The notes beneath the pieces are model-generated. The model was given only the letters and a program-made list of their open reading frames with translations. It ran no database searches and was not told the DNA's origin. From Hemicentrotus pulcherrimus (taxonomy: Eukaryota; Echinodermata; Echinoidea; Camarodonta; Strongylocentrotidae), in the NCBI GenBank assembly GCA_003118195.1, contig BEXV01000119.1, positions 275,798 to 339,797 of the forward strand: DNA of 64,000 bases, read 5' to 3'. Position numbers and translations under genes: made by a program. Positions 457 through 53,412 of the stretch are shown one piece after another (the stretch's first letter is position 1; each line of letters starts with the position of its first letter).

Positions 457-584
457 GTTTCGAAAGACCGCCTTTGGTACTCTTCAGATATTGAAAGTAG
501 ATCAGGAAGATTCTGGAGAGTATGCCTGCTATGTCTCCAACGACGCAGGCAAAGCTTCCAAGTTTGTTACTCTCACCGTCAACT
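457..584 (+). CDS. HMCN1: Hemicentin exon 1: second half of Ig domain 1
   Basis: The acceptor ends in cttcag and the donor is gtaagt. The exon enters in phase 2 and leaves in phase 1. It encodes the E-G strands with the DSGEYAC motif and a following SNDAGKAS turn. The first base completes a split codon, as in exons 3 and 18. Confidence 0.88.
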
Positions 585-3500
585 GTAAGTCTTTGCTATT
601 TGAGAATTCAAACTTCCATTATTATAGACAAGGGTGATTCACTTCTGGGAAAGGTGAACAAAATAATTTGTGAACTTGTTTCATTCTATTTATGTAAGTG
701 TGGGAATGTATCAGAAAAACGTCTCTTGAAAGGGATGGTTCTTCAAGTTCCCCCATACTCAAAATATGACAAGTAACAGCTAAATTTTGAAGACTGCACT
801 TTAATTCCTAATGTTTGTGTAGTTCCACATATACACACTTTTGTGTATAGTGCACATGACTTTTAGCAAGACTGGGTAAAATTCTTATCATTTTGATGAC
901 TCCAAAACTTCACAGTATACACCAATACTTATGTGCTTCATGAAACTTTTTTCAATCGCTTTCACACAGTATATTTAAGGATGCAATATTGCATGACCAG
1001 AACTTAATTTTATCTTTAATGAAACCAAGTATATTTGCAGATAACTACCGGTACACAAAGTCAGAGTTTACAACACTACTACTTCTTCACCTGAAATGTT
1101 ACATTGTTGAATGAATTAGTGGGAAAAATTAGTCTGGCTAAGGCACTTCAAAGCAGGTACAAAATGAAAGAGATCTGTACTTGGAAGATATTGGCTTTTA
1201 TGCAAGATTGAAGAACATTTCATGTAGAAGGAGCATGTCTTACACAATGTATGTACATTTAGATGACTGTTATTATGTTATATCATCATAAATGTGTAAT
1301 TTTGGATAGTAAAATAAGACAATTATCTCTTCAAAATAAAAGATTCTGAAAATGCTAATAAATCACATGTTTCTGGAACTGCACGTCTCATCAAAATTCC
1401 TAACCTGAGGAGTTAGAATGAGAATAAGTATGACACCAAGATTTAAGTGAGAGGATGATAATTCTCAGAGTAGAAATTTCAATCACAAGACAATTTTCAA
1501 AGAAATGGTAAAACATACTCAAGGTTGATCATGCAGAAAGCAATGACTTATGCCATATAACTCATTGTATGCTATGTTTTTTGTTTTTAACAGTGGCACC
1601 TATTTTGCTAGATAGTCCTGATTCCTAAACCAGCCTGATACGTAACCCTGTGACCCTTCAGTGTCTAGCTGCTGGCTTCCCTCCCCCTGATGTGACCTGG
1701 CTCAAGAATGGAGCTCCACTGAACCAAGATGATGTCAGGTAGGTTACAGGTCCATATTGGGACTCCTTTGAGACCATGTTAACAAGGTCTAGTCTTAGCT
1801 GGCTATGTTGAATGAATTGAGATCTTCGTTTTGAGCCACTTCTATGATAAAGAGAGCTTATATGTCACATTTTTTACTTTTGTGTTGACTAAAGATGAAC
1901 TTGCATCACTTTGTGTAAGATCTTAAACCAATATTTCTTGACTGACTATAGGGTGTGTGTGTGTTTCCGTAAGTTTTAATAGTATGTTGTTCTATAAACC
2001 CATATATACAGTTAAAAACTGAATTATTCATACCCTGACAAAGTTCTGCAATTTTTAAGTATGTAAACAAAATTTATTTGTCCCAATTTATTTTTTGTGA
2101 ACACAAAAAAGTATTTGGAAAAGGCCCTAATTCAACCAGTCTACAATTCATTCTTGAGTTAAAAAAAACATATCCATTGAGAAATGTATATAAATGTCTG
2201 AGAGTAGGCCTACATGTATTTATTTACATATTTGTAAAGTATCAACATCAATCATTTCCTCTCCCCTCCTATCCCTTCCTATCCAGGTACTACATAACTC
2301 CCAGCAACTCACTTCTCATAGCTTCCACCATGAGGGAAGATAGTGGCATCTATACCTGTAACGTAACTAATACCGCTGGATACCAATACAAGCACATGGA
2401 GCTAACAGTTTACCGTAAGGATTCTAAATGCTTGCAGAATTTTATAACAATAAGTCATCAACAGTATAAGAAAACACAGGAAATTCTCCTTGAATTTCCT
2501 TACCAATACCACTTGTTGTGGAACTTTTCCCTTCCTTTCAATTTGCTCGTTTCTGTATGTATGGACTGTTCAAACAATAGTCTGAGTTATAATTAGTATA
2601 AATTATTAATGTAGATCGATGCATAAGGAAATGAGAGACTTTTGTTGGTATCATTTTAATGATGAATAATAATATTATTAATATCTATAATATTACGATT
2701 TATATCCGTGTTTGCATAAAAATATATCATTGTACATTTGTTACTGTGTATTATCTATTTGTGTATATCATTTTCTACTGTATATTGTTCATGTGCCTAT
2801 GTAATGCCAACAACTGAATTTCCGAATGGACCAATAAAATTAATCTGAATCTGAATCTGAATCTGAANGTTAAGTCTCAAATATGATACAATGGATCCTG
2901 TTTAGCCAGGGATGTGGCTGTACTTGTCGCACATTTCTTAGGCAACTCAAGATGTCTATTAAATCAATGTAAATCTTTTCAACGATTGATTGCTTGTATT
3001 TATTATTGTTATTATTATTATCATTTGTTTGTTTTATGTTTGGCTTTCCCTGGTTCGCTTTCATGAATCTGTGGGAAAGCCAAATGGTCATAGGAAATCC
3101 ATAACTTGTGGAAGTGCAGCACAGAAAGCTGAATCATTTGTTCTTTATTATGTTTCTATCGTATGATATTTCTGGAATGTTGAATAAATAATAATAATGA
3201 TAATAAATTCATTTATGTTGTTCAACTTTTCTTATGTTGACAGTACCTCCAACATCCATCAACAGTGGAGATACCAGCTACGATGTTACCCTTAACAATC
3301 CTGTCTCGCTACCATGCGAGGTGCAAAGTTACCCCCCTCCTACCATTACATGGCTCAAGGATGGACGGGTGATCCCTTATACCAACTCCCATTACCGCAT
3401 CCAGCCATCTTCTCTTGATATCCCCATGGCTGTGGTGAGGGACTCCGGGGTCTACACCTGCATTGCTACTAACATCGTCGGCAACATTTCTAGGAATTAT

Positions 3501-6500
3501 CAAATCAACGTTCAAGGTTAGTCTCTGAATGATAGTAAATGTTGGTTTTCTATTTTTACTTTCATTTGGTTGTTTACTATCTTGGAGAGTTTGTGATTTG
3601 AGGAAGAGCAAATAAGGATCTATTTAGTATCATGGTGTCATGCTGTAATTCAATGTCAAGTCATTACTGATTTGAGAATGGAAATAAGGTGTGGAAGTCA
3701 TGATTAAGAGTTATTAATGTTGATGTTCTTGTCATAATTTAAATCTTAATGATAAAGTGAGTAATTATCTATTTTCCAATTCTTCTGTCTCTACTTCTGC
3801 ATCTTTTCCAAAGTTATCTTATCCCTGAACAGTCCAAATCTCATCCTTGGTTACCTTGTTGCTATCTATTCTTGACATAGTTTTATGCTAAATGATAAAG
3901 TGAATAATCATTTTGTTTCACCGCATCTCTCTATCTGTTTTCTGCATCTTTTCTAAGTTGTCATATACCTCAACAGTCCAAGTCACATCGCTGGTAACCT
4001 TGTTGCCTTCTATACCTGTTGTATGTTTCAGTTCCCCCATACATCAGTCCTGGTCCTGACACCATCACTGCCTACCTGGGCCAGAACGTGACCCTTCCAT
4101 GAGACTCTATCGGTGTTCCCACCCCAATGACCATGTGGGATAAGGGTGGACTGCAGCTCAACTACGACAACTCTCGATTCCACAAGCTGGATGAAGGTTC
4201 TCTGATCATCAGTGATGTGCGGGAGTTGGATGCTGGTGTTTATTACTGTCTCGTGGTCAACCAAGCGGGCTCTGATACCAAGAGGATCACTCTTACTGTA
4301 AAGGGTATGTCTCCATACTCTCGGGGGGAGTGTTTCACAAAGACTAAGATTAACTTTAAGTTGGACTTAACTATGGCAGGCCATCCATGCCACTGGTTGC
4401 TCTCACCATTGGTCTCGCAAACAGTGGCATATATAGCTTGCCATAGTTAAGTTCAACTAAAAGTCGACCTTAGTCTTTGTGAGACACTCCCCTGATCTCT
4501 TGTGACAATTATCAATTGATTCACCAGTCAATTACCCTAAGAAAGTAGTAATGGAAGTTGTGATTTCAAGCTATTGGTGTTAAAGTTCTTGTCATGATAT
4601 TAAGCTAAATAATGATGATGCTCCTTGCATTATCAACGAGCAACCTGAAGTACTCATAGAAAAGAAAAGGTGCATTAGACATAAAAGGTTCATAGTTTGG
4701 GATGTGAAAGAAAAGTTATTTCCGTAGGTCAAATAATTATTTTACATCACCAGTTTAGTTGTTTATTAATTTTATCAGATCAGACTATAACATTTTGCGA
4801 TTCTTGTCATTCTTTATCATGATAGATGCTCCTCGCATCATCAATGAGCTTCCTGAGGTGATGGAACAGATAATGAACACAGAGGTACGGATACCATGCC
4901 AAGCCACAGGGACACCTAGACCTCAGATCAGTTGGTTCAAGGATGGACGTCCCATAGAACAACTCAGAGGCTACACGGTGCTTGGAGACAATACCATGCT
5001 GATATCTAGTCTGCAACCCTATGATAATGGCCGATACGAGTGAAGAGCACAGAGTGAGAGTGGGTTCGATTCTATCGATGTCTTCATCGATACACAGGGT
5101 AAGTTTTCTTGGAACATTTGTTTGAATAGTGAGCCCTTATATTGCTGGTGAGAACATAGCCAATGATCCTGTGATGATATTTACTGCAGACAGTCGTTTT
5201 AGAATGCAATGTCACCGACTACCATCCTCCTGCCGAGGTTACATTATGAAAGTTTTGAGAATATTTTTAATAGTTGATGAAGCATGGAGGTTGGATATGT
5301 GTCATACTAAATCTTATCAATATATGAATGGTTTAATCCCAGAAGGAGCTAAATCCACTTTTGATGAAAATTAAGTCATTGATATCAGAACATTGTTCAT
5401 TTAAGTACCCGTCATTCAACAAAAGTACTTACCTAAATTTTAGGAGCAATTATGAAAAAAATTTACCTTGTAATATCACCTTTCCATAGACACCTGTGCA
5501 AAATCTGGTAAAAAAACTTTTTTCTCTGAAGTTACAAAAATGGATTTAGCTCCTTTTGGAATTAAACTCTTGATATTTCTCTTGTTTGTGTAGTGCGCCC
5601 TCACATTGCTGGTGAGAACACACCGGACGATCCTGTGGTTGTCTTCACTGAAGAGGATCAGACGGTCATCTTAGAATGCAACGTCACTGACTCTCACCCT
5701 CCTGCCGAGGTCACATGGTACCAGAACGGTCAGGCCATACTGGCCAGGGCAGACATCGGGATTCACTTTGAGACGGGTGATACCAGTCTCAGGTTACCAT
5801 ACCTAAGGCCAGAGGATGCTGGTCACTACCATTGTGAGGCAACCAATGGACAGGGGTCCAGTCAGCGCCACTTCTCCTTGGAAGTCCACGGTGAGTAATG
5901 ATTAACACTTTGGTTACTTTCTTGGCCTCTCTCCGAGTTCACTCGTTAGCCACACATGCAATTTTGCACAAAATGATAGGTACCAATTGACTGAAAAATT
6001 GCTTTGTGCAACACAGTGACTTCGCAAAATTACCCATTTGTGGTCTTGATCAGCTTCATGACAATCTTTTTAACACTGTTTAGATCAATCTTGCACTGTA
6101 AACAGTTCAATAATCTTTAAGCCTTTGGTATATCCATCCCATGATAAGTATAATTGGCATATAAAGAGATGAGGATGTTTTCTATACATTTAGTTGTTGG
6201 GATTTAGTGGTTTAGGTTTGTGGAGTGGTTTAGTCACTTGACTAAAAATGTGGGGGTCCTTGGATTAAGTCCTAGCATGGCATTTACATGTATATCTTTC
6301 AGGCATTTTATCTACATTGCTTTGATTGACTAGGATGTATCGATAAGTAACCAGTAGGATGCAAAGGACACTAAGGCATGAATCTGTGTGTGGCAAGGTG
6401 AATCTTGATTGATAGAATGCCCCTGAAGGAAAGTGAGCTCTTAAATGTGATTGAATCCAAAAGAGAATGTAATCATACTATTTAAATACTTTGATCAGCT

Positions 6501-9500
6501 GCTGGTAGGAGAGAGATGTATGATTTAAAAAGAAATATTACTTTTTATATCTTGATTTATAACACAAACTGAATTACAAATTACATGAATATGATATTAG
6601 GCTGTTAGTGCTCCCAGATGCTTATAATGATCTCAACTTGTTCCACCAAACACAGTCGGCCCGGTGATAAGGAACCGACGACAGGAACAGGTCACGGTGC
6701 AGGTTGGTCACAGCGTCACCATCCACTGTGAAGCTAGTGGGGTACCCGACGCCAGGATTCTTTGGATGTTTGGAGATATCGCCATCTCCAGTCAGAACAG
6801 CCGTTATCACATCGCTAGCAATGGCTCCTTGCAACTCAGAGAGGTACAGGTCATTGACTCGGGCATGTTCACTTGTATCGCAAAGAACTCAGCTGGAAAC
6901 GACACCAGAGTGGTCAATATAAATGTGATTGGTGAGTATGATGTTGGTATGCTTACAATCTTTCAGTGATTTCAGGTGTGTTAACATGGACTTCGGCCTT
7001 TTTTTAATCCCCCTTATGTATTTTACTGTAATTTCAAGTATATACCTGCGTTTATTAATTCCATGTTTTTGTCCTCACCGTAATAATTTAATGTCTTTTT
7101 TCATAACCTTTTATGTACATATTTGACCCATTTAGAAATTTTCCCTTTCCATTCTATTTGTCTCCTCAGTGCCCCCATCTATCAATGATGGCACGTCTGA
7201 CATTGTCCGCACACTCTCCAGCTCAGTCATCCTCCCTTGCGAGTCGGCAGGAGTACCTTTCCCTGAGATCACTTGGTACAAGAACGGCGCACCTCTGAAC
7301 CTCTCCAACCCCAACCTGGAGAAGCTCTTCTCAGGCTCCCTGAGGATCCGTAGCGTGGAGGAGCAGGATGCCGGAGAGTATCGGTGTGTGGCCGTCAACC
7401 AGGCTGGCCATGATTAAAAGATGCTCACGCTTTGGATACACAGTAAGTTTCGCTTTCCATTTATGAAACCATGAAACAGGGATCATAGTTGAATGTGACT
7501 GAGAAATGAAAAAAGCTAGAAATGTTTTTTTGAGTTCCGATTAATTTTTTCATCCTTTCATACTTCATAGTCTGAAAGGTTTTGTTTTGTTTTTGCAATT
7601 GTCTTTCTCTATGATAGTCAACTTTGAGTTAGTACAATGCCATAGAAAAATATTGTTTGTGAACAAAACAATTTTTTTCTTCAAAAGGAAGTCAAGTCAA
7701 TGCTCTTTATAATGCTTTGACTATATTTTATTTCTTTTTTCAATTGCATGTAGATTTAAAATCTTGGGTTTGACAATTTTATTTCCAGTTCTGCATATTT
7801 TCTCCATAAAAAACGATGTTGTATATATAGAGAACAGTGCATTCCAAAGCTGATGATGTTGTCACTTACAGTTTGTTTCAATGTTATTTATATATATATT
7901 GCCTGCTTAGAGCCAGAGGGGCATTATCATATGTGCTCATATTGTATCATCTCTTTCTTTCTCTCTCTCTTTCCCACACTCTTTCTATCTCTCTTTCCTA
8001 CACTCTTTCTCTCTCTCTTTCCCACACTCTTTCTCTCTCTCTTTCCCACACTCTTTCTCTCTCTCTTTTCCACACTCTCTGTGTTCTGCAGCCCCGCCTT
8101 CTCTGCAGCCGGATGCATCCAGGAACGTGTCAACCGGGGTGGACGAGAAGGTCATTATCCCCTGCAACATCAGCGGTAGCCCCAAGCCGCAGTATCGCTG
8201 GCTAAAGAACAACCGCGAGCTGCTGATGAACTACGGCAAGATGGAGCTGCTAGAGGACGGTTCCTTGATGATCAGGGACGTGCAGTCGATGGATAGGGGC
8301 TCCTACACCTGTGAGGCTACTAATGCTGTCGGGGTGCTCAGCAGGGAGGTTAGGCTTGAAGTGTCAGGTAACTTTAACACTTCTGCTGCTTTCTTTGCCT
8401 CCCTACACCGTTGCTTGTTTGCCGCATGTGCCATTTTTATGCCTATGCTACAAAGTAGTCGGAGGCATTATGTTTTCTGGTTGTCCGTCCGTCCGTCCGT
8501 ACGTCCCGTTCTCGTGATCGCGTTATCTCAAGAACCAGTCGATGGATTCCTGCCAAACTTGGGTCATGTATTTATCTATCAGAGCTTATGAACTGATTAG
8601 ATTTTGGGGTCACAAGGTCAAAGGTCAAAGGTCGCAGGGCTCATTACGTATACAAAAATAGCTTGTGATCGCATTATCTCAAGAACCAGTCGATGGATTC
8701 CTGCCAAACTTGGGTCATGTATTTATCTATCAGAGCTTATGAACTGATTAGATTTTGGGGTCACAAGGTCAAAGGTCAAAGGTCGCAGGGCTCATTACGT
8801 ATACAAAAATAGCTTGTGATCGCATTATCTCAAGAACCAGTCGATGGATTCCTGCCAAACTTGGGTCATGTATTTATCTATCAGAGCTTATGAACTGATA
8901 AGATTGTGACAAATAGCTTGTGATCACATTATCATGAGAACCAATAGACAGATTACTATCAAACTCAGGACATGTATATATATATCCTGAAGAGCCAATT
9001 AACTGATTAGAGTTAAGGGTCATCAGGTCAAAGGTCATGGGGCTCATTATGTATGACTATAAATAGCTTGTGAATGCATTATCATTAAAACCGACATGGA
9101 TTACAATCAAACTTGAATTCTAAAAATAGCTTCCGTTTTGGTATTAAAATTGCTCTTTAGCGGAGACATCATTTTTGAATGCAAGCAGTCTAAATTCCAT
9201 CTAGTTCACAATACAATGGGCACCGATCGACAGACACTAAGAACATGACAGACAAAGAAAGCGGACAAAATATACAGTTCCTCAGGTAGACAAAGGAACA
9301 TCCCTTCACTGCTATTGTGTAAAAAGTGAATATGCAAGTGCACCTGTTCTACACATATTTACATGAAAGCAGTAGTGAAGGGATGTTCCTGTGTTAACCT
9401 GAGGAACTGTATATTTTGTCCTCTTTCTTTGTCAGTCATGTTCATAGTGACAATGGCTTTGCAAATTTACCAATATCTGGTTTGATTAGTGCCATGGCAA

Positions 9501-12500
9501 GCCTTATCCAGCATTGTAAACAGTTAAATAATCTTGAAGCCTTTGGTATATCTTTCCCATGATTGATACACTGTAGTACAGAGAGATTATTTGTATGGCA
9601 AAAAAGAGTTCATACTCTTAGGTCTCTCTCTTTCTGTAGATACTTGGATATAGCTAATGTATATGTGTCTCTCTGTCCCCTTTTTCCTTTTTAGTTTCCA
9701 TTTATATCCCTCACTCTCTCTCTTCTCGTCACTCCATCTCTTATTCTAGCAAAATAATACAATATAACCAATACCCTACTAAACTTGAGTTACAATCACT
9801 GATCTTGCGATCTGTTCAACTTACCGAATTCTTAATTTAAGAGAGTATATTTCTTATCCGCTTGTTCTTTGAACTGTCTTGAAGACCGGTATGTCGCACT
9901 GGTTTTGTCCTCTCCTTCCTGTATCGTAATGCTGTTGAACTTGAATACTCTTTGTCCCAAACAGATCACATTGTGGCAATTTGATGGTGCCTGTTTAAAG
10001 TACGTTGTGATTTTCAACGCCAAATAACTCAATTTTATGTTTATGAAATGCTTCAATGCGAGAGGTAGAGAGATGATGATGATCAATCTTTTCTATCTAT
10101 CTATCTAAGTATCATCTCCCAGTTGATTGCAACATTTCACTCTTTCATCTTCTGCCATTCCGGTGCACTCTTGCAGTTTTAGTCCACTCCAGTTCTTGAC
10201 ATTCTCTCCCAGTTGATTCTGTGTCTCCCTTTTGGTCTAGTTCCTCCCACTCTTACCTCAATCTTCAATCTTTTATCACTTTATATTGTTCTTATATAGT
10301 TGCTCCAAAGATTCCAGGTTCCAAGACGCCTGTAGAGTACCCAGTAGGGCAGTATGATTCCATCGAGCTTCAGTGCATGGTAACGGATGCCTTCCCACCA
10401 CCCATCATCAAGTGGTATAAAGGAGATGAGACGTTGACTGGCCAGGAGGAGGCGGTCACTATCAAAGACCAGGGCATCACCCTGGAGATTGGGTCTGTTA
10501 ACATAGCCAATGCTGGGGAGTACTACTGCACAGCAACCAATGATGCTGGTATGGCATCTATGAACTGGACAATCGACGTACAGGGTAAGAACATCTTGAA
10601 TATTGACTATGTGGAGACTCTTTGTAACTTGAGCCCTGAGTTTTATAAATAACCCTGGTGCAAAAGTATATTATTGTAATCTGATCTATATTAATGTAAA
10701 GCTATATAATGTAATTATCTGTTTATTTATTTACAGTAAAGGTTTCTAGAATTGTCTTCATTATTATATAGTGCTTTGAAACACTTGTGCAAAATCTCCA
10801 CTCCCTGGGGAGCATTCCATCCAGGAGTTACTTGACGCTCACAAACTGTTTGACCAACGATGAAGGTGGCATCCTACCAGGTACCCATTTAACACCTGGG
10901 TGGAGAGTAGCAAGTGTAGGTTAATATCTTGCCAAAGGATATTAGTGCCATGTTGGGAGTCAAACCCTAGACTGGAGAGTCAAGCACCTTAAACTATGAC
11001 ACTCCTGATCAGACACACTATTATATCATTATTTTTACAGTTACACCCAGCATCTTGAATGGACAGGACGAGTACCTGACCACGGTCCAGAACGTTGACA
11101 TCACCCTCCTGTGTGAGGCCGAGGGTAACCCAGCGCCCACCATTACATGGGAGAGAGACAACAAACCCTTGGAGCTTAGAGACAGTCACTACCTCATAGG
11201 AGAAGACGGTTCCTTGAGGATCACCGCTCCGCAGCACACCGATAGCGGGGGCTAAGTTTGTGTGGCGTCCAACAACATTGGATATGCTATCAAGAACTTC
11301 CATCTTGTTGTAAAGAGTGAGTATGTAGGATTTTCAAGCCTATCTGCACTAGTTTGGCCAGGAGGGATTAGACCTCCCTGCATGGTTAATGGCAAGTGGT
11401 TATCTCATCAAATCAGCTCTCAATTAACATAAGAAAAAGGGGACCATGGGGGATGAATGGGTACCGCTTAGGCATTGTTGGCTGTATAGAGGGCGCAAGT
11501 AGCTACAAGTAGTGCAGTCCCGCTTAAAAAGAAGAAATGTTGAAGAAAACTTAATGGAATAAATACTTGGTGATTTAACATATTTTGTTACCCATGTTGA
11601 AACATACAGAGCAAAATACTGCCCACCTCGGCCAGTTGTTGTTGTTCTTAGGTTTTAAGGCTGACCAATCTAAAAAGATTATTTCATGGTCTGATAACCA
11701 CAGTGTGTGCATTTTATATTGGTTCGTCAAACCCAATTCTTGCATTTCAGGTTATACTACCAATGTGCATGCACAGGCATTTTTCACTTACTGCTAATGG
11801 TTGGCTATGTATATGATGTCTACATGTAGGCCAATAAGATGCAAAATTACCATGAATGAGAATAAGAGGACAGTATTATTCACTTTGATCCATGTCAACT
11901 CCTTCCTTTATCTTTTCTAAATCCCATAAATAGGCTTGTTTCAAATCCTCTCAGTCCGTGTCCCCATGTCTATGGAACAAACTTTCTACATTTCTAAGAA
12001 ATATTACTTCATTTAACTTCTTCTAAAACCATTTGAAAACATACCTCTACAATTCTTGTTAATTTGTTGATAGACTACAAAGGGACAACTTTTTGTATCC
12101 TCTGGAAAAGGTGCTATATAGATCCAATCATAATTATTTGTGTTGGTATTGTTATTATTATTATGTTGTGCACTTTTTGTATTTCCTTGCTATCCTAGTT
12201 CCTCCTAAGACGAGCACGCAACAAGAGGTAGTGACCATAGGTTTACGTCAGTCGGTGACCCTACGATGTCAAGCTGCAGGATTCCCAGCACCAACCATCA
12301 GCTGGAGAAAGAACAACCTACCAATCCCTCTCAGTACCCGAGCCTTTAGCATCAGCAGCAATGGAGGCAGCCTGACCATCAACAGCACACGAGAGGGCGA
12401 CAGTGGCATCTATTCCTGTATCGCTTCCAACGAGGTGGGCGAACAGTCCTTGGACATCCTGCTGAAGGTGCAGGAACCACCCATCATCCTAGGAGAACTT

Positions 12501-15500
12501 GAGGTCAATCGTATGCAACATGTCCAGCTGGTAGAAGGTGATGACATCGAGCTGCCCTGCCCAACCACCGGTTACCCTAAACCAAGAGTGGCCTGGTTCA
12601 GAGACAACCGGATTCTGTCTCCTCCAGAGTATAAGATAAAGGATGATGGAACATTGGTCATTCCAGGAGCCATGCCGTTTGATGCTGGTGTGTATACTTG
12701 CAGCGCAGTGAATGAAGCTGGAAACTCAAGTATATCCATTAATGTCACAGTAATGGGTAAGTCTGCTTTCATACCATCTATGCCAATAGTAAAAGCTCTC
12801 AGTATAAACTGATGTAAAACAAATGCACTCCACTAGCGACTTTGAACAGAAAGGTGAAGGAAGTTGGAAGGAAAAGTGAAACGATAGTGGTGAAAATGTT
12901 TGATCGTGACAAGACTTTTAATCAACCATCAGGATACCTCCTTATAACATGTTTATTTTTCAGTGTACATGAAATATAGGAACACAAAATTTGTTTCTTT
13001 CAAATTTTGATTTGCCTTTGTGTTTTGTCCTTTTCAGATCAGAGATTGACTGATCTTTGACAGATGTCATATATACATGTATGTTACTTCTTGATGCCAA
13101 AGCAATTATTCTTGATCTTTGAAATCTCTTTGTATTTGATTCCATCAATTCTTGATTTTCAGTTCCCCCACTCATCGTGGATGCTTACAGACCTGTGGAC
13201 ATCATAGTCATTCTAAACAATCCTGCAAGGTTGTACTGTGAGATTGACATCTCTATCCCCATGGCAACCATCGTCTGGCAGAAGGATGGCATCTCTCTTC
13301 GGGAGGATTCAAACATCCGCATCTCTCGGGACGGTCAGATCCTTGAGATTAATCAGGTACAGGTCAACAACGAGGGTCGGTATACCTGTATAGCAACAAA
13401 CAATGCAGGAAACGCCACCAAGTTCTTTGGTCTTACAGTCCATGGTAAGTATGACCCAGACTTCTGAAACAATCTTGCTTTCATATACTTGTGGACATTG
13501 TGGTACAATCCTGCCAGCTTTGTTGAGAATACAATAATGAAATATAACTAAAGTAACTAAGAGTCTGGGTACCACAAGGGAGTGTACTTGCCCCTGTCCT
13601 ATTTCTTGAACACATTTGAAGGCAGACTGATCCTCTTAAAAAAAAAATGATATGATAAAAAAAAAAATGATATAGCCTAATAGTCCTCTCCAAATTTTAT
13701 TAAACCAAAACGGAAAATTCTTTTTGCCCAACTGATCGTGAGCCCGGCAGCCACTGTTCAGCGCCAGATCGACGTTGCTCTATCCCTTATTGTTGAACGC
13801 CAAACAAGGTAGCAACAACTCGCATCTTTTAACGTCTTTTGGTATGACGCGGCTGGGGTTTGAACCCACGACCTCCCGGTTGTGAGGCGGACGCTCTACT
13901 GACTGAGCCAACACTCCACTCTTTGTAGCAAAACAGGATTTTTAGATAATTCGTACAGTATAGAAGAAAAGTATGATTAGCACCATTAAGCGTTTTCAGA
14001 AAGATGCAGATAACCATAATATCATAATCCCAAATATTGTTATGAAAGTTGTTATCATATGAAAACCTAAAAACTTAAAATGCAAGTCATTCATGCTTTC
14101 TTTCTTTGCCCAGTTCCTCCTATTTTCCCTGATGGTAACCCTGTGAACCCCATGATGATGAGCATCAATGAAGATGACTCTACCCAGCTTAGTTGCCATG
14201 CCAGCGGGTACCCTCCACCCACCATTAGATGGTACAAAGATGGCCGCCTGGTAACCCACAATGAGCCGGGCGTGGCGGTGTCCAATGCCGGAGAAGTTCT
14301 AAGGATTAACAGGGTGAATAGAATACATGCTGGGCAGTTCACCTGTGTCGCAAGCAGCATCGTAGGGAACATCTCCAAGAGTTATGTGCTCAATGTTAGA
14401 GGTGGGTTGTAAGAATTTAGAGAATGGTGGATTATTATTGAAGAAATAGTGTTGATTGTGCAGTCTCTGTAGTTGTTGATATTTGTATAGTCATTTTCGT
14501 CAATGCTCATGAGAGTTTGATTTCCTATTCTGCAGCCTCAAATGAAAGAAGTATAGAATGGTTGCCAACATTTTCTTTTAACTACCACTTTAAATTTTAC
14601 CTACCCTGAATACAATTAACAGTCTTTGCCTGGTTTATAAGTAACATAGAAAATGTTCTATCCTAGCAAAAAAATGGAACAAAATACTTGTATCACTGAC
14701 CTCATTTATTCACTGTACTATAAAAATGATGACCAATATACCTTGGAAAGACACGTTGAAGCAAATTAAAGTGTGTACACAAATCCTTTCTTCCCCCCAA
14801 AACAGGGACATTTGTAAGAAAACATGATAATATGATTTCATTAATTTGAGCTTAGTAATACAGATGAACAATAGTTAGTATAAGGTGATACAGATTTGTG
14901 TTGATTATTTAGAGGAGCAATAAATAATAAAGCCTTCGATGGATCTTTCCAATTCTTATAGTGAGGCCTGAGATTGAAGGAGCAGAGTTCCCTCACAATG
15001 TATCTGTTGTTAACAACATGGGTATTGAGCTGCGCTGTCCAACCGTAGCTATCCCCGTCCCGGAGATTGTTTGGTACAAGGACGGTCACCGACTTCACCC
15101 CTTCCAGAGCGGAGTCCTCATCTCTCCCGATGGCACCACTCTGAGAATACCCAATGCTCAGCTCCACGATGAGGGCGTCTATCAATGTGTTGCGACCAAT
15201 GTGGCGGGAGAAGAGATGAAGCTGTTCAATTTACAGATTGATGGTTTGTACTTCTGTGATTTATTCTTATTATTTGTTAGAGATTGGGCTATGTGATGGG
15301 GTTAATGTTTTTAGAGATGTCATGGTCTAATGGATAAGTCACTGAGCTATGAATAATAACAATGATGCAGTAGAGGAGAATGCTTAATCGCAAGCTTTTT
15401 TTGTTGTTGAGTGGTTAACAAAGGCCACTGACAATTAGTATAAAGTTATACTTTTCATCTTTTGTCTCTTTTTTTTCTCGTACCTACAGTTCCACCTGTC

Positions 15501-18500
15501 ATAGTATCTAGGGAGCCTAATCAGATTGCCGTCATAGCTGGTGGCTCAACTACTATTGACTGCGAGAGCTATGGTGTCCCCAAACCAACAGTGACATGGA
15601 CAAAGAATAATGCCTTTATATCACCAGCTAGCATAAGGTGAGGTGTCTGGATGTTTTCATGGTCACTATCTTTTTGCGCAATTCTTTTTTTGTTTGTCCT
15701 TTCACCTCCTAACTCTTTATTTAGTCCAGTTACTTTTGCAAATTATTCTTATCTCTTAGTGAATTAAGAAGAGCAATGTATATGGAACTTTGAAAATTAA
15801 CCAATATTATGTTCACATTTATATAGCATCAGGTTTGATAAATGAATGTACAATTTTAGCATACATGGTCCGGTGAATTTTGTAGATTACTGTAACTCTT
15901 ATCAGGATTAGGTTTAAGAATCTAATCTATCCTGATTCAAATCAAAGATATGTGGTAGGAAATTTGACTGGTTTAAATTGACAATAGCAGATCCATGAAC
16001 CTGCTGTGAAGTTTTACTAAGATGAATTAAATTGAATTGATATTGACTGCATGTAACATGGCTAGAAGTTAGAAGGCATTCTTAAGGTCAAGATCGGAAA
16101 GGGCCTGTGGCATCAAAGAGGCTGCAGCTGTCACATAATGAAGATGAACATGGCCAGACAAAGCAGTCTTTGAATGCCTTTAAAGAACTTTGAGTGAAAT
16201 TATTTAAAATTTAATTTCAAATTATTATTGATCAGATTGAATTTAATTGAGTTGATTTTGACTATAAATTGTAGCAAAGCTTTGGTGATAGTGGTGGTGA
16301 TGGTGGCGGCAAACGATGCAGGCTTTTAATACTTTGAATTGACTCAGTGAAATTATTTTAATTTGATTTGAATTAATATTGATCAGATACGACATAGACC
16401 CAGCTGGATTGCTCCATATAGCTACAGTGACAGTAGCAGATGAAGGTGTCTTTGAATGTTTCGTCTCCAACTCTGCTGGCAATGTGACAAGAAGAATAGA
16501 TCTACAGGTTCAAGGTAAGATTCCATTGGTTTACTGAGAATCAAAACAGTTTTAACCCATGACAGTCTAGTATCAATGTTTAGAGATTTATCAAAAATTC
16601 TTATCTTTTGATCCAGTATGCTCTGAATTGCAAATCATACATGAGCAGAAAAGAGTACACCAATTGTTAGAAGACTTGAGGCCATTTCTGTTGCACGACA
16701 TTGTTTTGTTCATGAATAAGAGTGATTGAATTAAAAATAATCATTAAAGTATCTAAATTTAAAAGTTTGATTGTCAAGCTGTTTTTATTTTCTTCTTTGA
16801 TATGTTAGTTCAACCAACCATCACACCAGGGCGTGGTAGGGTGACTACCCGAATAGGTCAGTCAGTGCGCCTCTTCTGCGATGCCACCGGTGTCCCTACC
16901 CCAGAGATCCTGTGGCAGAAGGATGGTCAGAGGGTTTATCCCATGGAAGGATTCCTGATCATCAGTGATGGTATGTTGCAGATCAATGATGCACAGCCCT
17001 CAGATGCAGGGCGATAAGACTGCATTGCTAAGAATGGAGCCGGAGCGGATGTCTTCAAGGTCATTCTTGAGGTTCATGGTGAGTTTCCTGGGTACCACAT
17101 ATAGTTGATGTTAAGATTAAAGTCTCTTAACCCATTGTCTTCCTGATTGTTTTCTTCCGTTCGGCATGTACAAGAATCACCTTTTTTTCTGTAGGCATTG
17201 GGATAATAAAGTTCTATGATTGGAAAGAATTAAACTAAAATTTAGGCCATGTGGGTGCAAGGTTGCTCTAACTTCATGTTGAGTGTTATGATACCAGATT
17301 ATTGATTAAGGGGTAAAAGTCTTTCTATCCACCCTAGGTGGGGTTGTTTAACCCTAATAAGGCCGAGGAGGGGGGGGGGGCACTATGGCCCCCACCCTAT
17401 GTGATTTTTCTGATTGTTCGGGAATGCATACAGATGCGCCCCGCCGCTCACAGACTTTTCTCTCTCTCGCTCGAGTCTTGCACATATTTTAAGACATTTT
17501 TTTTTAATCGGACGTACAGTTACAAATGTCAGGCAGAAAAGTGCTTGTTTTTGTGATTTGTTTACAAAACATATGGAAATGTCATTTTCCTAAAAAGAGA
17601 TAAGAACATTGGTTATTTGGTCTTGTTTAAACTTTAGAGTTTGTGTTGGGGGTTAAAATAGTTGAATTGTCATTTATTTGCATAAGTTACCATAAATGTG
17701 CAAATGAATGAATTTTTCAAAAAATTGAATTTACCATAGTCGCGGCGATCGGCCGTTTCACGCCAGAGATCATAGAAAGATCTGAAATACCCCGGCCTCA
17801 TTAGGGTTAAGTGATCATATTGGAAGAACTGCATACTTGACCACAACGATCCACAGAAGGATGCATGACCATTTTCTTGTTTATTATCGCAATCACTTTT
17901 AAGAAGCAAGTACTACATTTACCTGTTCAAATATAATGTAACTGATGCATATGTATTAATGAGATGGAACCAATTTTTTTCATTTTTTCCCTTCATAGAG
18001 CCACCTCAGATCGCAGAGACCACTCAAACATATGAGATCAGAGTAGATGCTTCTGTTGAGTTGGAATGCCGTGTCAGTGGGATTCCCAAGCCAAACATTC
18101 GCTGGCTATTCAATGGACAAGAACTGGGAGCCCAGAGTCTGAAGCTTGCTAATGGAAACCTCAAGATACCTGTTGTGAGGGCAGAGGATAGTGGGGCTTA
18201 CACTTGTCTGGCTCAGAATGATGCTGGATTCGCCCAAGCAGAGAGGATTCTTGTAGTGCTAGGTAAGTAGCCATGGCTTATAAACGATGGCTCAAAATGA
18301 TGTTGGGTTCGCCCAAGCAGAGAGGATTCTTGTAGTGCTAGGTAAGTAGTCAAGGCTTAGAAATGATGGCAGAATGAGTGTGGGGTTCGTCTGCCAGACT
18401 GCTGTTTCTTCTCTCATTCTGAACATATTCTGTTCTAATCCTAAATATCTTCTGGTTTTCCCTCTTATAGATGTTCCAAGGCTTCCAAGACCACCTCGTG

Positions 18501-21500
18501 AGCAGTCCGAGATGACCATTAGTGTGAATCGACGAGCAGTGTTGACCTGTCCAGCTGATGGCTATCCACCCCCTGAGGTCACTTGGAGGAAGGATGGAAT
18601 CCTCGTTGAACCTGCCGGTAGAATCACAATGACTGAGAACCATGAACTCATCATTGACAGAGTACAGGTAAAGCAAGGTCATCCATCGAATGATAATGAT
18701 AATGATGATGATGATAATAAAATTATGGGTTTATATAGCGTTTGATACATCAACAAATCAACAATGTCTCTATGCACACACAATATGTGCACATACTCCA
18801 CTCCCTGTGGAGCATTCCGGCCAGGCCTCATTATACATAAATTAACAGTACAGAGCAAACTACAATGACCAGGTCCCCATTTAACTCATGGGTGAAGAGA
18901 AGCCACATAGAAAAAATGCAGAACCAATGACCTCTTTCAGCACCTCTTCCTCATGAAAATTAATCATTGAAATTACAACAAAAAAACATCATTTGAGATG
19001 TTGGTGATAGGGATAGGCATTTGAATGGATGATCATATAACAGTTTGAAGATCATATTCAAAAACATGCTTAATCTTTGTTTTGAAAGAAGAATGATATT
19101 TTTAGACTGGTTTTCAACTTTTCCTTCTTTTCTTAATGTTTCTCCTCTCCATTTTTGTTTTACTTCATGTTATATTCTGTTTTCTTATTTTTGCTGCCCA
19201 AGCAATCTTATCATATTAACTATATATATTTCAATACTGAAAAATCAATTGTAACTGTATTTCATGTTTGAAATAGGCAATGAGTCTTTTAATTTCACAC
19301 ATGACCAATTCAGCCATTGGGCTGTGACACATTAAAAAACAACAACCTTGAATTGAATTGAATTGAATTAATGTAGTAATAAACAATGTATATTAATTGA
19401 AAATTAATTTGATATGATGTTATCTGCAATTACTTCAAAGTGCAAAGAAAGTTGTGCACAAATTTATGAATATCTTTGTAATTGGATTATTATTAGCAAA
19501 AATAACTTAAGTATGCCATTAATTTATTTTGTTGTTGACAATCATAAAAAAATACAATTGACACAGATCGTGGATGTAGATTGATGTAGATGTGTTGTGT
19601 TCTGTTTTGTTTCACCAGGAAAGTGATAGTGGTACCTATACATGCGTGGCTACAAATTCTATTGGCAGTAACAGACTAAATTTCTACCTCACAGTACAAG
19701 GTATGCCATGGGTTCAATTATTGCATTTCTAAAGTTCTGTAGCTTTGGTTTAAGATATGCATTTAAGACATCAGTAAATGAAGATGAAATTTCAGCAAGG
19801 TAGCTGGTAAAATCGGTAAAATCATTAAAAAAATGAGAAGGGACAGAGGGAATGCATTTTGAAATAGGACTCTTCACAAGTTAGTTTGCTATTTTTGTAT
19901 CCTGATTTGTAAACATTTTTGTTTAAAAAAATAATAGAACATCAGTTCGAAACATTCACATTCGTAGTCAAAAGACTACATCTTAATAAGCATTACAATA
20001 ACATTAATATTAGTCATGTACAAAAATATAAATACATTTTACTAGCTTCAATGATCATTAAATATTTTGATTTCATATGAGAAGAAGGAGCAAGAAATTA
20101 ATGGGATTTGATATTTGATATTGAATATATGCTATACAGATAAATCAAAGTACAAAGCCATCGAAACAGAAACTTATAAACATTCTCTTTGCACATATTT
20201 AAGAAATACCAATTATTGATTGAAAATTTTGATAGTCTGACCATGTGTTTTAATTGTGTTCATTTTCAGTTGCTCCAACATTCACCCACTTCCCAAATGA
20301 TGTAGAGCTAGCAGCTGGTAACAGACTGGAATTGATTTGTGAAGCTATTGGTGTGCCTATGCCTGATATTACATGGCTGGTCAATGGGACTGAGATGATT
20401 CCAAGTAAGGAACATGATTACCCTGATATTATTCAATATATTCAATACTAGTAATTGTAGGATTCCAGAATGAACAGCATACTGTACACTTTGCTAAATG
20501 CTTACTCATGGAGACTGTTGTCGGAGCAAATAGGCAAGGAAGACCAAGGAAGAGATGGAAAAGTGACATTCTAATAAGGAGCACCTTCCAGAAGTCATAT
20601 AGAATCGCTTAAGACAGGAATACATGGTTTGAATATGTTTGTGGAGCCAACTTCTTTAGGGACACAGTGACAGCTTAGGTTAAATTAGTTTAGCTTAGCT
20701 TGGCTTAATTGTAGTAGGTTCTTGTGTGGTGCTTTTATGTGGCACACTTGCCACTCCTGATGCTTCAATATTTTTACCCTAGCTTTAGCATGACAGCCAT
20801 TACAGCGCTCAATCATTTGAAGGAACTGATTCCGACCGAAATACAATTTACATGTACCTCACCTTAGATGAGTGTGTAGCAAATTTTAGATTGGTGTCTT
20901 GCAAAGGAGATAAGTTCTGCAACATTTTCACTTTTCACTTTGTTTTTCAACTTATAATTGCTTTTATTAATTGAAAGGATAATTATCCTACCTTTTTCTG
21001 TATCACTATCATTTACACCTGTACATACATACATCTTTTCATCATGTAGACCCACCTACTTTTGATGGTCGTAGTGTGCTTGCCATTGGGAATGTACAGA
21101 AGAGTGACAGTGGAACGTACATGTGCCGAGCTGAAAATATTCTTGGTGTGAGGACAGCCATCACTGCTGTACGCGTTAGGGGTGAGTTACTACATTTGAG
21201 TCAGTTTTAATATGTTAATTGCACATGTATATTGCACATTTATGAGTGTAGTTCAACCAATGTTTGTTATTGTGTATGGTGTGTTTACATTCTGAGCATA
21301 GAAGCAGATCCAGAGATTTTTTTTGTTGGTAGCGTGTATTTACATCCCATCGCTGCCATCCCTAGAATAAGGAGCTGATTGGAATTCAATTTGAGAGATT
21401 TTTATCTTTATTTTCCCTTTCAAAAGAGATGTGTTTATAAACCTACATCGGACACCTGCAAAAAAGGAGTCAAAATCCAAATGATTTTCCAGTTTATATT

Positions 21501-24500
21501 GTCAATATAACAATTAGAGTATTTATCACTAAAGGGCATTTAGCAAGGACTTTTATCTGTAGTGTTAACATTGAACATTGAGTAAAGGCTGTAAAGTAAT
21601 AAGTTTTAAATGTCTTAATTCTGGACAAACGTTTTCTGTATTTATTAAATTTTTTGTTTGTTCCCCCTTTCTCAATTCTCTATGTATCTCATACTTATTC
21701 TATCCCTCTGCGCCTCAGAATAGTTTACTAGATCGATGGCGCATAATAAATGCTGTATTATTATTAGTATTATTCTTTGAACACCATTATAGCAACTTGA
21801 GTGGGTAGTGAAATTATATAAACACTCATGTTCCCTTACCAAGTAGGGCCAGATGAAAATTCTAAGTTATCATTATGAACTACTGTACAATCTTTTTGCA
21901 GTGCCACCCAGGATCCACCGCATCCCATCAGACACTACCCTGACCCTAGGGGAGAGGGCAGTGTTGAACTGTGCAGTGAACGGTGACCCCAAACCAGAGG
22001 TGACGTGGCTCAAGAACAACCGTCCTGTAGCCCTGACTGACACCATGCAACAGAGTTCTGATGGTTCTCTCATTATAGCACCCACTGCTGTAAGTCTCAT
22101 TATAAAACCCTGAATGGTTTCTTTCTATCTATCAAGGTATCTTCTCCAAGCTCAGAGGTTGATTTCAACATATTTCCACACACCTCTGTTTTCTGCTATC
22201 CTAGTACACTTTTGGAGTGTCATTCTACTCCATGACTTATTATTCCCTTCCCAGTTAGTTCCTGGTTTCCCTCTTGGTTTATACAATTTGTGTTAATCAG
22301 AAAGTGAAAAAAGAATCTTCATATTGGAAACTTGAAAGGGTATTGACTGAAAGTAAACATATCTGTTTAAATCAGTTTCAATTGACAACATATATGTAGA
22401 TACTAGTAAAAGAAAATATGAATCGAAAATATGAATTGTACCTTTGTTTTCACTCTCAGTTGAGTGAATAACGGAGTGTGTGGATAGCAAATTAGTTTAT
22501 AATTCTCTGTGGGGAAAATATCTTTGAGTTATATTTTCTGCAGTTCATAAGCATTTGTGCATAACCTTAGAAATAAACTTTGATAGCACCTTTACTCTAA
22601 GGCAATACCTCTTTTTGGATTAAAAAAATAAAAAAAGTAATATATTCAGTCACACATCCAATCTGTTCTTAGCCAGTGTATCCCCTTTCTGTTGAAGATG
22701 TATTACTTGGTCACTTTTGTTTTCATTTATGTATTTGCATTTGTTTTCGTTAGATATCTGATGCCGGTTTATACAAATGTCAAGCCCTTAACCTCTATGG
22801 CCTTGATGAAGTCAGCTATCACCTTGAAATACAAAGTAAGCAAATCTCAAGACATCTTTTAAATATAACAAAGATACCTGCCCATGCTATCAGATATGTT
22901 GAAACTTTTGCCGAGATGTAGACAAGAATTACATATGGTATATGGTCTATGACTTAGAGGGTCTAATCCATTAAAAATTGATTGATTTAAGGGTTATTTG
23001 TACCTCAATGCAAACAAAAAATTGTTCCAGTGAAAAATTAATATAAAATTTTCCCTTGTTTTGTTTTGATAACTATTTAATCTTGTTTTCTGAACATTCT
23101 TATCTAAATGATGTCTATTTTTGGGCCTATTTGAACATCATCCCTTAGGAATTCACTGAGTTCCAAGATACAGAAATGTGTAGACTATTACACTTTTCAT
23201 CATCGTAAAAAAATATGCTGCCATTTTGCCACATCATATATTAAAGAAGGAGACTACAATGATTTTGTTTGCAGGTCGTCCTATGTTTGTGGTGGAGCCA
23301 CAGAACACCACAGTATCCCACGGTGAGAACGTCCTCCTGGACTGCATAGCTCAGGGAGAGCCTGAACCGTCCATGAGATGGCAAAAAGAAGGCTTCAGGG
23401 TGCTGCCTGTAGGGCGTGTTGCCATCCTACCAAACAATACCCTCAAGATAGTGGCCGCACAGCTGACCGATAGTGGAGCCTACATGTGTCTTGCTGAAAA
23501 CCAGATGGGTCGAGCTGTGATGACCATCCATCTGACCGTCATGGGTGAGTGATTGACTAAGAAACTAACCACTTTTAAATTGACAAGTGTTTTCATTATG
23601 AGGGACTATTGACACCTTTGCATTGTGCGTTTAGGTAATAACAAGCTAGTCTGACACAAATCTTTGTTATGTGCAATGGATTAGGAATCATGAATTATGC
23701 ATGACTTTGAATTTGCATCTTGTGCATATGCAAATATGTTTTGTGAATGATTTAGTAGTATATTAGATTATGCACTTACCATAGATGTGTTGTTTCTGGC
23801 ATCAAATAGTTGGTTGGCATAAAGATCAAAGAAGATGTTGGAATATTCAGACTGCAATTGAAGATAATGCATAATCTTTATCAAACGATAGAGAGATGCA
23901 AAATGGAGGGACATACCACATTCATAAAGAACATGAATTGACAGTGTGTTATTGTCTTTCCTCCTTTAATTTACATTGCATTCATCAGCGTGCAAATGGC
24001 AAATTGTAATAAGGTATTTATGTTATCAACAGTTTGTTGTGTCTGTGTTTACTTTTAGATAATTAGAGTTGATATTGGGTTTTGTGATTCTGTCTTTGTC
24101 ACTTTTTCACTATCATGAAATTGTTATTCCTGTGAAAAACTAAAAAATCAAGAAGTGAGGATAATCAGTTCATAAAATTAGAATAGAAGAAATATATTCA
24201 GCAAGTGCATTAAATCAATTTTGAAAAATTTGATTAAAAAAAATGTAATTAATTTTCGTATTCCAAAGCTCCACAACTGTTTTCAACGGATCTTTAAAAA
24301 AAGGAAATGTTTATGTTGTGTTGTCCTTGAAATATTAATTGTGCACAGCTTTCAGGAGTGTAGTGCATGGTAAAAGTTGACTGGGAATCAATGGTTGTAG
24401 ATATTTGTACGATTAGTTTCATATGGGGCATTCCACAAATCATTTGTAACATGCATGTCTTTATTATTTGTTTACTTGTACTTTCTGTTTTCGTTTTCTT

Positions 24501-27418
24501 TTTCAGACATAAGTTGTTGCATTCTGGTTGCTCTCCTTTGTCTTTCTTTTTATGATTTATGTGATTTTTCATTTTTCATTTTTTTAAAATTAATATTTCC
24601 TCACAGTAATTTCTGCACATCTTATTCATGGCAAATGATCAGTAATTATCACATTTTCTACTAACTTATGTAAAGAGTTGTAACATTTTATGAGCATACT
24701 TTCAGTTTTTCTTTGAATTTTATGTTTTATTAATAATTTATTATCATCTTCTTTTAAAGAAGAGATATAAAATTTCAAAAAGAATTTACTGGGCAGATTT
24801 AAAAAATAGAATTTAATGATTTTTTTTTTCTTTGACAATAAATATTTCTATCCCTCCTTTTTTCTTTCATTATTATTTGTGTCTGAGCGTTTTGTACTGT
24901 TTGTTTTTCTTTCTTTGGTTAATGAAGTACTTGTTTGATATCAAATGTGCTCTCTGTATTTATTCCTAAATGTTTTTTGTTTCAATGTCTTAAAAGTTAC
25001 AATAGTGTTGCTGTTATTGTTTCAACTGTTATATGTGTCAAACTTAATCTGAAAGATAGTTACAATTATTTGCATGATCCAGGTAGTCTGCCATCAAAAA
25101 TGTTCAAATTATTTTGGAGTGTTTGTATTTAAATTAGCAGGATTGAAATTCTATTGAAACCCTACTCTATTATTTATAGGCACTTTTCTGTCAATATACA
25201 GATCAGAGTTACTATTTCCATTATTTTTATAATTCACATTTGCACCATTTAATATGGTTGAAACAAGAAGCAAATCATCTTCATATTTAAATATGTGGTA
25301 AAAAAAACTTATGTTTTAAATGAAAAGGTATTATTTGAATAAGTGGGAGGGGGATATAGAAAAAAAATGTGTTGAATTAGTAGTTAGCCACTATGAATTT
25401 TTCATTTTAAACAAGAACAAGTAATTGAGAATTATTCCAGAAAACTCTGCTATGGATCATTTGGCTTTTTCAACGGTGCTTTTTCATTTTCTAGATTCAC
25501 TTTAATACTTTCTCTCATATTGGTTCAGAGTTTCTCAAGTCTTAGACAAGAGGTTTTTTTTAGAAAACATCCTTGGCATATAAAGTTCACCATTATCAGC
25601 AAACTAATTCATTTATGCTTTGAATGAGTGGAAGACTGAATAAGGGGATTTTTAGATTGAGAAAAGCCCAAGATTTACAATGATTATGATTCTTGTTTAC
25701 TCATCAATCAATTGAACCAGAAGCCTCTGGAGCCCATCAAATCTGCTAGTCATTTGAGACCTAATTTTGAAGGTCTTCTTTAAGTCCCAAAGCAAAAGTT
25801 TATCCGTTGACTTGAGAAACTCAGAACCATGTACATTATTTGTAAGTTGCTTCTTGCTTGATTTGCATTGCATGATGGGATGCTTCTGTCTGACAGTGCA
25901 TGGCGGCTGGTCAGAATGGACCGAGTGGGGGCAGTGCAGTAAGACATGTGGGCGGGGCATGAGGATACGCACACGTCGCTGCGACAGTCCGTCCCCAGCT
26001 CACAATGGACTGCAATGCACAGGGCCAGAGGTAGAACAGAACTCATGCCATTTGGATAGTTGCCCTAGTAAGTGCTGGCTATCTTGTGTGGGTGCATGTT
26101 TGTGAGAGCTTTTGTGTGTGTGGGCTTGAGGATGGAGTTCACAGGTAGGTGATGAGATGAAAATGAAAGATGGACTGCAGTACATTAGTTTATATTCATT
26201 ACAAGCTAAGGTATTCTGACCATATTTTGTGCATGACCAAATTGTGGGTACAAAGTCAAACTATACAAAATCAATCAGATTTTAGAAATCTTTCTTTACC
26301 AGATATTATATCATCACAAAAAAGGGACAATAGGCAATAGTTTCATCCAAATTGGTTGGTATGTTGGGTTACTAATCCAAAACATATTTCCATTATTAGA
26401 TCATTGCGTCTTCTTTTGAATATAATATCCGCTTAGAGCCAGAAGGGGATTTATGTGAAATTATATTCAGTGGACAATATAACCAGTCTATTCCTCTTTC
26501 ATTTTATCTGAACTAAATTTGTTGACATTACAATAACTCATTCAGTCATTCACACTTGTCAGTCATAAACCTATTGCCTAGGAAACATTTTTCATTTGAT
26601 CATTATTGTTTGAAGTATGATTTGCGATTTATTTCTTGATTTGCATGACCTCTGCTTTTTATTCAATGCAGTTTGGATTTTGCAACTTGTAAGTTTTTTA
26701 GTGCCCAATGTGTAATGTTGATTCCCAGTACCAGTACGGCAATAACTTTTGCTGTTTTTCATTTTGTGCCAGATACGGCAATAAATTTCGCTGTTTTTCA
26801 TCATAATCATAACATTCTTTGAATAAAATGAAGTCCTCATGATCAGAACCTACCGTTTGTATCATCTTTGTGGAGCCAACCGCTATCATGTAATTTAGAG
26901 TTAATACTCTTGTGGTTCCAAAGAGACAGTATCTTCTTCTCTATCATAAACTGGCTATAGTTGCTCAATTTTGTGTGTTAAGAAAGAGAAAAGACACTTA
27001 TCCTCAGGGAATGCAGACACTTCATAAGAAAAAACCTATTCTCATAACATGAATCTTTTTGGAGCCAGAGCCTATGGTCATGAAATGATGTTCACAATCT
27101 AATTGATGTTCTTGCCTCTCTGTTCAGTCCATGGTCGATGGGGTGAATGGCAGCCGTTTGAAGAATGCTCTGTAACCTGTGGGTTTGGTGTCCGTGTAAG
27201 GCGGCGATTCTGCGACAACCCACCGGTTCAGTACAGAGGAAGGGATTGTGAAGGCGAGGGTATCCAGCAGGACGAATGCTTTGCAGGACAATGCCCAGGT
27301 TAGTGATGAGGATGACAATGATGATGATGATGATGATGATGGTGAGGAGGATGGTGGTGGTAGTGAGGAGGAGGAAGAGAAGGACGAGGTAGAAGATAAT
27401 GGTGATGCTGATGAATAT

Positions 27419-27453
<35 letters not shown>

Positions 27454-53272: not shown

Positions 53273-53412
53273 TTACATGTACTCGATGTAAGTAGTAGGT
53301 ACATAGCCTTCTTCCTCTCCGCGACGAACCCTTGTCCAGCCATCACCGCTATCTTTTTCTATCAGCTCCACCTCTTCTCCTTTACCCAGGCATAGTAGGT
53401 TATCATCATCAG
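53273..53412 (-). CDS. FNBP1L: Toca/CIP4 last exon: SH3 C-terminal part and stop
   Basis: It reads DDDNLLCLGKGEEVELIEKD, then SGDGWTRVRR and EGYVPTTYIEYM, with TAA at 53275-53273. ALYDY-type start, acidic RT loop, GWTR and YVPTTY residues make a canonical ligand-binding SH3. The protein ends three residues after the fold, shorter than vertebrate members. Confidence 0.93.

What the first reader, a model, noticed from the sequence alone, without database searches (positions are those of the whole stretch)
1626..17017. Six in-frame stops, all UAA at Tyr or UGA at Cys positions, in an otherwise intact hemicentin
Seen: TAA 1626, TGA 4100, TGA 5041, TAA 7415, TAA 11253 and TAA 17015 are in frame inside six Ig exons. 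The whole 46-exon, roughly 3,087-codon frame has no frameshift and no lost GT or AG. TGA replaces the B-strand Cys (4100) and the F-strand Cys (5041). TAA replaces the YxC Tyr (11253, 17015), and aligns with Tyr of paralogous domains at 1626 (exons 4 and 20) and 7415 (exon 3). Each is one third-base change to A from TAC/TAT or TGC/TGT. Neutral decay should give mainly CGA, CAG, CAA and TGG losses plus indels. Alternatives are systematic C-to-A sequence error, deliberate or software editing of the sequence, a null haplotype, or genuine recoding.
Basis: partly seen in the sequence, partly recalled or inferred. Interest (0 to 1): 0.75.

Follow-up and report, generated by a model that had tools for sequence, protein, structure and literature searches.

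The report
Urchin hemicentin with artefactual stop codons
Six stop codons that seem to interrupt an otherwise healthy sea urchin matrix-protein gene are most likely mistakes or edits in the sequence record rather than biology, because the rest of the gene shows no sign of decay.

Summary
In detail: a 46-exon hemicentin frame (457..42236), every AG/GT present, no frameshift, six in-frame stops (TAA 1626, TGA 4100, TGA 5041, TAA 7415, TAA 11253, TAA 17015). The Strongylocentrotus purpuratus ortholog, 98% identical, has Tyr, Cys, Cys, Tyr, Tyr, Tyr there. The rest of the gene is under normal constraint: 18 missense changes on the window branch against 22 on the S. purpuratus branch, and of 1,083 residues invariant in five echinoderms the window departs at six, five stops and one Leu-to-Met. 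Codon-blind decay or error would give that with P about 2e-6 to 4e-4. Recoding is unlikely: TAA ends the neighbouring TOCA-type gene and TAG ends this one. Best explanation: an artefact that wrote A at silent C/T-variable positions. It explains why only Tyr and Cys codons become stops, but the stop excess fits it only moderately (P 0.003 to 0.08). Deliberate editing is the main rival. A 46-residue stretch is missing, probably in the N gap. No reads, no S. purpuratus DNA and no whole genome could be reached.

The parts
457..42236 (+). hemicentin-1 gene, 3' two thirds (46 exons in the window; upstream exons lie outside)
   Evidence: gene model, 98% identity to S. purpuratus hemicentin-1 from residue 1521 to 4653
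1626..1628 (+). in-frame TAA, exon 2; Tyr in 8 of 8 echinoderm orthologs
4100..4102 (+). in-frame TGA, exon 5, Ig B-strand Cys in 8 of 8 orthologs
5041..5043 (+). in-frame TGA, exon 6, Ig F-strand Cys in 8 of 8 orthologs
7415..7417 (+). in-frame TAA, exon 9; Tyr in S. purpuratus and Diadema, His in Lytechinus, Ser in 5 others
11253..11255 (+). in-frame TAA, exon 12, YxC Tyr in 8 of 8 orthologs
17015..17017 (+). in-frame TAA, exon 19, YxC Tyr in 7 of 8 orthologs (Phe in one)
4996..4998 (+). ATG (Met) at a Leu that is invariant in the 8 echinoderms compared: the only other violation of a five-species invariant residue
32004..32363 (.). run of N between exons 34 and 35; a 46-residue segment of the ortholog is missing in this stretch
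42234..42236 (+). terminal stop TAG of hemicentin
53273..63763 (-). TOCA/CIP4-type gene, 3' exon pieces, control: 11 Tyr/Cys codons intact among the 232 codons examined, terminal TAA at 53275-53273

Best explanation
The gene is an ordinary, constrained hemicentin-1 of a strongylocentrotid sea urchin, and the stops are not in the animal. Shown: the frame is intact and constrained, and the orthologs have Tyr or Cys at these sites (one site varies). Inferred: a consensus or file-conversion step wrote A at some positions where C and T are silent alternatives (a heterozygous or variable C/T site, IUPAC Y). Silent variation sits mostly at third positions, so such a step respects the reading frame without knowing it: Tyr and Cys codons become TAA and TGA, four-fold codons change silently, and Asn, Asp, His, Phe, Ser(AGY) and Leu(YTR) codons show up as rare missense with an A.
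For: Only Tyr/Cys codons, only third base, only A; no TAG inside the frame and no Cys-to-Trp. No missense excess: 18 window-branch against 22 S. purpuratus-branch changes, 15 unresolved; mean BLOSUM62 +1.06 and +0.86 against -0.58 for random missense. Of six violations at 1,083 five-species invariant sites five are stops and the sixth is Leu to ATG, a change this model allows; P=0.02-0.08 under this model against 2e-6 to 4e-4 under the four codon-blind ones. Four further changes have the predicted form: Asn to AAA (494), His to CAA (6832, 40356), Phe to TTA (22769). In two published strongylocentrotid read-mapping data sets, variable sites were called with IUPAC codes (PMC5521101) and genes with premature stops were left out (both PMC5521101 and PMC11212366); passages seen. 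The passages seen do not say where the stops came from.
Against: The other codons are hit too rarely: in exons 1-19, 6 of 93 Tyr/Cys codons against at most 3 of 374 others (Fisher P=0.003); gene-wide 6 of 237 against at most 5 of 684 (P=0.04); with only the two clearly window-branch cases, P=0.001 and 0.005. At the other codons' rate 1.7 stops are expected (P=0.009). Only 4 missense changes can be third-base-to-A where six stops predict 14 (P=0.002). All six stops lie in exons 1-19 (P=0.003). Stop-bearing exons carry somewhat more missense (16 in 503 codons) than the other exons 1-19 (18 in 1,117), which this model does not predict. Three of the five predicted-form changes are unresolved and may be ordinary divergence. 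No software that does this to this assembly was identified. Four-fold sites gave no clear signal (log odds 1.38+-0.20 against 1.00+-0.19).
Confidence: 0.5

Rival explanations
1. The sequence was edited on purpose or by a program that knows the reading frame: selected Tyr and Cys codons were turned into TAA and TGA, as a watermark, a planted test or a simulated code change.
For: Specificity for Tyr/Cys codons beyond the silent-site model (P 0.003-0.04); six different exons, none in exons 20-46; no collateral damage.
Against: No direct sign of editing; a generic stop planter would also use Gln, Glu, Lys, Trp and Arg codons (21.6% of one-step nonsense is of the kind seen). Rests on elimination.
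Confidence: 0.28
2. Codon-blind base-level error, such as oxidative C-to-A damage or a sequence-context error, that happened to fall on these codons.
For: All six codons end in A; under pure C-to-A about 74% of nonsense is Tyr/Cys to TAA/TGA. The loosest test, counting all 33 window-branch and unresolved missense changes as errors, does not reject C-to-A (P=0.15), Y-to-A (0.14), C-to-A/G-to-T (0.23) or any-to-A (0.07).
Against: Six nonsense changes would bring about 50 (C-to-A/G-to-T), 59 (C-to-A) or 114 (uniform) missense changes; at most 33 exist (P 0.007, 2e-4 and below 1e-18) and the 18 window-branch ones are as conservative as the 22 on the other branch; P 2e-6 to 4e-4 at invariant sites.
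Confidence: 0.08
3. A natural null allele or young pseudogene.
For: In-frame stops are in the record; missense density is somewhat higher in exons 1-19 (34 in 1,620 codons against 21 in 1,467) and in the stop-bearing exons (16 in 503).
Against: No frameshift, no lost splice site; apart from one Leu-to-Met no missense at five-species invariant residues, although 10 missense changes lie at the 1,978 sites invariant in three echinoids; none of the transition-type nonsense that decay favours.
Confidence: 0.06
4. Stop-bearing Ig exons are skipped: exons 5, 6, 9, 12 and 19 are phase 1-1 modules of 270-276 bases and exons 2+3 together form one, so skipping keeps the frame.
For: Phases and lengths.
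Against: Most Ig exons of the gene are such modules or halves of one, so this is not specific; exons that are dispensable should collect missense at invariant sites, and only one such change (Leu to Met in exon 6) is seen.
Confidence: 0.03
5. Genuine recoding: UAA is read as Tyr and UGA as Cys in this gene.
For: All stops sit where S. purpuratus has Tyr or Cys, and the frame is constrained.
Against: UAA ends the neighbouring TOCA-type gene two residues after its SH3 match, UAG ends hemicentin, and all six +4 bases are purines, which I recall as efficient termination contexts. The listings of two paper searches showed no such metazoan case; neither was exhaustive.
Confidence: 0.02

Closest known systems
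Hemicentin-1 (S. purpuratus hemicentin-1 isoform X1, P0001)
   Same: 98% identical over the window's 3,087 codons, collinear apart from one gap; Ig, TSP1, G2F and EGF domains found in the five exons scanned
   Different: no stops at the six positions; 46 more residues where the window has an N gap; 1,520 residues upstream that lie outside the window
Premature stops in consensus sequences of highly heterozygous genomes
   Same: strongylocentrotid read-mapping data sets used IUPAC calls at variable sites and removed genes with premature stops (passages)
   Different: those are mapped consensus data, not this assembly, and the passages seen do not give the cause of the stops; Y written as A is my inference
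Nuclear code changes of ciliates such as Euplotes (UGA as Cys) and others (UAA as sense)
   Same: stop codons at conserved sense positions (recalled; paper listing only)
   Different: those act on whole genomes (recalled); here UAA ends the neighbouring gene

Membership tests
Hemicentin | long array of I-set Ig domains | tested here: met
   Pfam I-set in the two Ig exons scanned; full-length match of residues 1-1640 to hemicentins
Hemicentin | TSP1 repeats, then G2F, then EGF domains at the C-terminus | tested here: met
   TSP_1 1e-15, G2F 3.6e-15 (partial, profile 95-180), EGF 2.9e-05, one exon of each kind scanned
Hemicentin | N-terminal VWA-type domain | not testable with these tools
   lies upstream of the window
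Pseudogene / null allele | frameshifts, splice losses, relaxed missense | tested here: not met
Stop-codon reassignment | reassigned codons no longer used as terminators | tested here: not met
   TAA ends the neighbouring gene; one gene only, and UGA as a terminator was not tested
Stop-codon reassignment | same reassigned codons in other genes | tested here: inconclusive
Silent C/T site written as A | equal rate at other two-fold Y codons and Leu YTR | tested here: inconclusive
   rates differ, P 0.003-0.04; at invariant sites P 0.02-0.08
Silent C/T site written as A | reads show C/T variation at the six sites | not testable with these tools
   no reads available

The most novel reading that the evidence does not exclude
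A metazoan nuclear gene in which UAA is decoded as Tyr and UGA as Cys at six sites by a gene-specific recoding mechanism, while UAA still terminates at least one neighbouring gene.
Probability: 0.02. Interest if true: 0.92.

Novelty: not a real feature. Interest (0 to 1): 0.2.

Why it matters
If the artefact reading is right, this assembly should break many long genes at Tyr and Cys codons, and an excess of Tyr/Cys-to-TAA/TGA stops without missense load would be a simple diagnostic for such files. If it were recoding, it would be the first of its kind known to me in an animal nuclear gene.

Tried and rejected
Null allele or pseudogene: rejected on missense counts and invariant sites. Codon-blind C-to-A, Y-to-A, any-to-A and uniform error: disfavoured at invariant sites, though the loosest whole-list test (39 nonsilent changes, unresolved ones included) leaves C-to-A, Y-to-A, C-to-A/G-to-T and any-to-A unrejected (P 0.07-0.23). 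Any third base turned to A: 4 missense changes of that form against 14 expected (P=0.002). Bit-packing that turns Y into A but R into C: considered from recall; it predicts Lys-to-AAC and Glu-to-GAC type changes, and none is in the list. Exon skipping: not specific. Four-fold-site and Ile ATA composition as a test of silent A gain: uninformative. Broken gene models of the same genome: searched with 651 residues between two stops, E up to 1e-100, only the 7,996 best-sharing candidates scored; 3 hits, two fish proteins and one without a name, no urchin fragment, so absence is not shown. Papers: searches were seen as listings with the starts of abstracts; passages only of PMC5521101, PMC11212366 and PMC3704236 (no heterozygosity figure).

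The invariant-site figures used the true exon boundaries.

Full report
What is there. I read the window on the + strand and rebuilt the gene from its splice sites. The model has 46 exons from 457 to 42236; every intron is GT..AG and all phases chain, giving 3,087 codons and a terminal TAG. Domain scans of five exons give I-set Ig, TSP1, G2F and EGF.

Relatives. A search with residues 1-1640 found 264 proteins at E up to 0.001 (120 listed); the best is hemicentin-1 of Strongylocentrotus purpuratus at 98% identity, then Lytechinus pictus 86% and Diadema setosum 69%. Against the S. purpuratus protein, 3,026 of 3,087 residues agree: 55 missense differences and six stops, where S. purpuratus has Tyr, Cys, Cys, Tyr, Tyr, Tyr. 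The window is thus a strongylocentrotid, another species or a different allele; which one is not determined. A 46-residue segment of the ortholog between exons 34 and 35 is absent and was not found between those exons by a local alignment in three frames (best scores 23-27); the 360-base N run lies there.

Is the gene decaying? With Lytechinus and Diadema as outgroups, 18 of the 55 missense differences are on the window branch, 22 on the S. purpuratus branch, 15 unresolved. Both resolved sets are conservative (mean BLOSUM62 +1.06 and +0.86, random missense -0.58). At 1,083 residues invariant in S. purpuratus, Lytechinus, Diadema, Patiria and Acanthaster, the window differs at six: five of the stops and one Leu to Met at 4996. 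With eight echinoderms it is 735 sites and five departures (four stops and the same Leu to Met); with the three echinoids alone, 1,978 sites and 15 departures (five stops and ten missense). Six nonsense changes from uniform mutation would come with about 114 missense ones, from C-to-A about 59. The probability that at least five of six violations at the 1,083 sites are stops is 4e-6 (uniform), 2e-4 (C-to-A) and 4e-4 (Y-to-A) over the whole gene, 2e-6, 3e-5 and 5e-5 in exons 1-19. The stops and the missense changes therefore have different origins: the missense has been through selection, the stops have not. A weaker test that takes all 33 window-branch and unresolved missense changes as errors gives P 0.012 for uniform and 0.15 for C-to-A.

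What could respect the frame? Natural silent variation does, since it sits mostly at third positions. If a C/T site is written as A, Tyr and Cys codons become TAA and TGA and little else is visible. This also permits the Leu-to-ATG change and four further changes ending in A (Asn to Lys 494, His to Gln 6832 and 40356, Phe to Leu 22769), of which only the first is clearly on the window branch. The fit is moderate: the non-stop codons are hit less often than the model wants (6 of 93 against at most 3 of 374 in exons 1-19, P=0.003; 6 of 237 against at most 5 of 684 gene-wide, P=0.04). The finding was picked for its stops, which softens those values. If the shortfall is real, a deliberate or program edit of Tyr/Cys codons is the better reading. 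Artefact, edit and plain base error together I put at about 0.86.

Biology. Recoding would need UAA as Tyr and UGA as Cys. TAA ends the TOCA/CIP4-type gene on the minus strand two residues after its SH3 match (Pfam HR1_TOCA 1.9e-16 and SH3_1 6e-09; best PDB match CIP4; terminator), TAG ends hemicentin, and the base after each of the six stops is A or G. Purines follow 137 of the 231 intact Tyr/Cys codons of the gene (counts), so six of six has P about 0.04 by chance. All six stops lie in exons or exon pairs that could be skipped in frame, but so do most Ig exons here.

Limits. No reads, no S. purpuratus DNA and no whole genome were reachable; the genome search did not complete. The clustering of the stops in exons 1-19 (P=0.003) and the slightly higher missense density of the stop-bearing exons (16 in 503 codons against 18 in 1,117 for the other exons 1-19) are not explained by the reading I prefer.

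Noticed in passing
53273-63763, minus strand: 3' exons of a TOCA/CIP4/FNBP1-type gene with HR1 and SH3 domains, ending in TAA; a 14-codon exon-like piece at 58957-58998 ends at a GT donor.
   Followed up: partly
31306-33734: A 46-residue segment in the G2F region of hemicentin is missing, probably inside the N run 32004-32363.
   Followed up: partly
18206-18350: Seen by eye: the end of exon 20 with its donor site is repeated just downstream in the intron.
   Followed up: no
8507-8905: Seen by eye: near-identical tandem copies of a roughly 150-base unit in the intron after exon 10; no repeat tool was run.
   Followed up: no
2868 and 57621: Single N letters next to low-complexity sequence, looking like one-base scaffold joins.
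   Followed up: no
exons 1-19 against exons 20-46 of hemicentin: Third-position composition differs between the two parts: A at Lys/Gln/Glu codons is 49 of 201 against 81 of 192.
   Followed up: no
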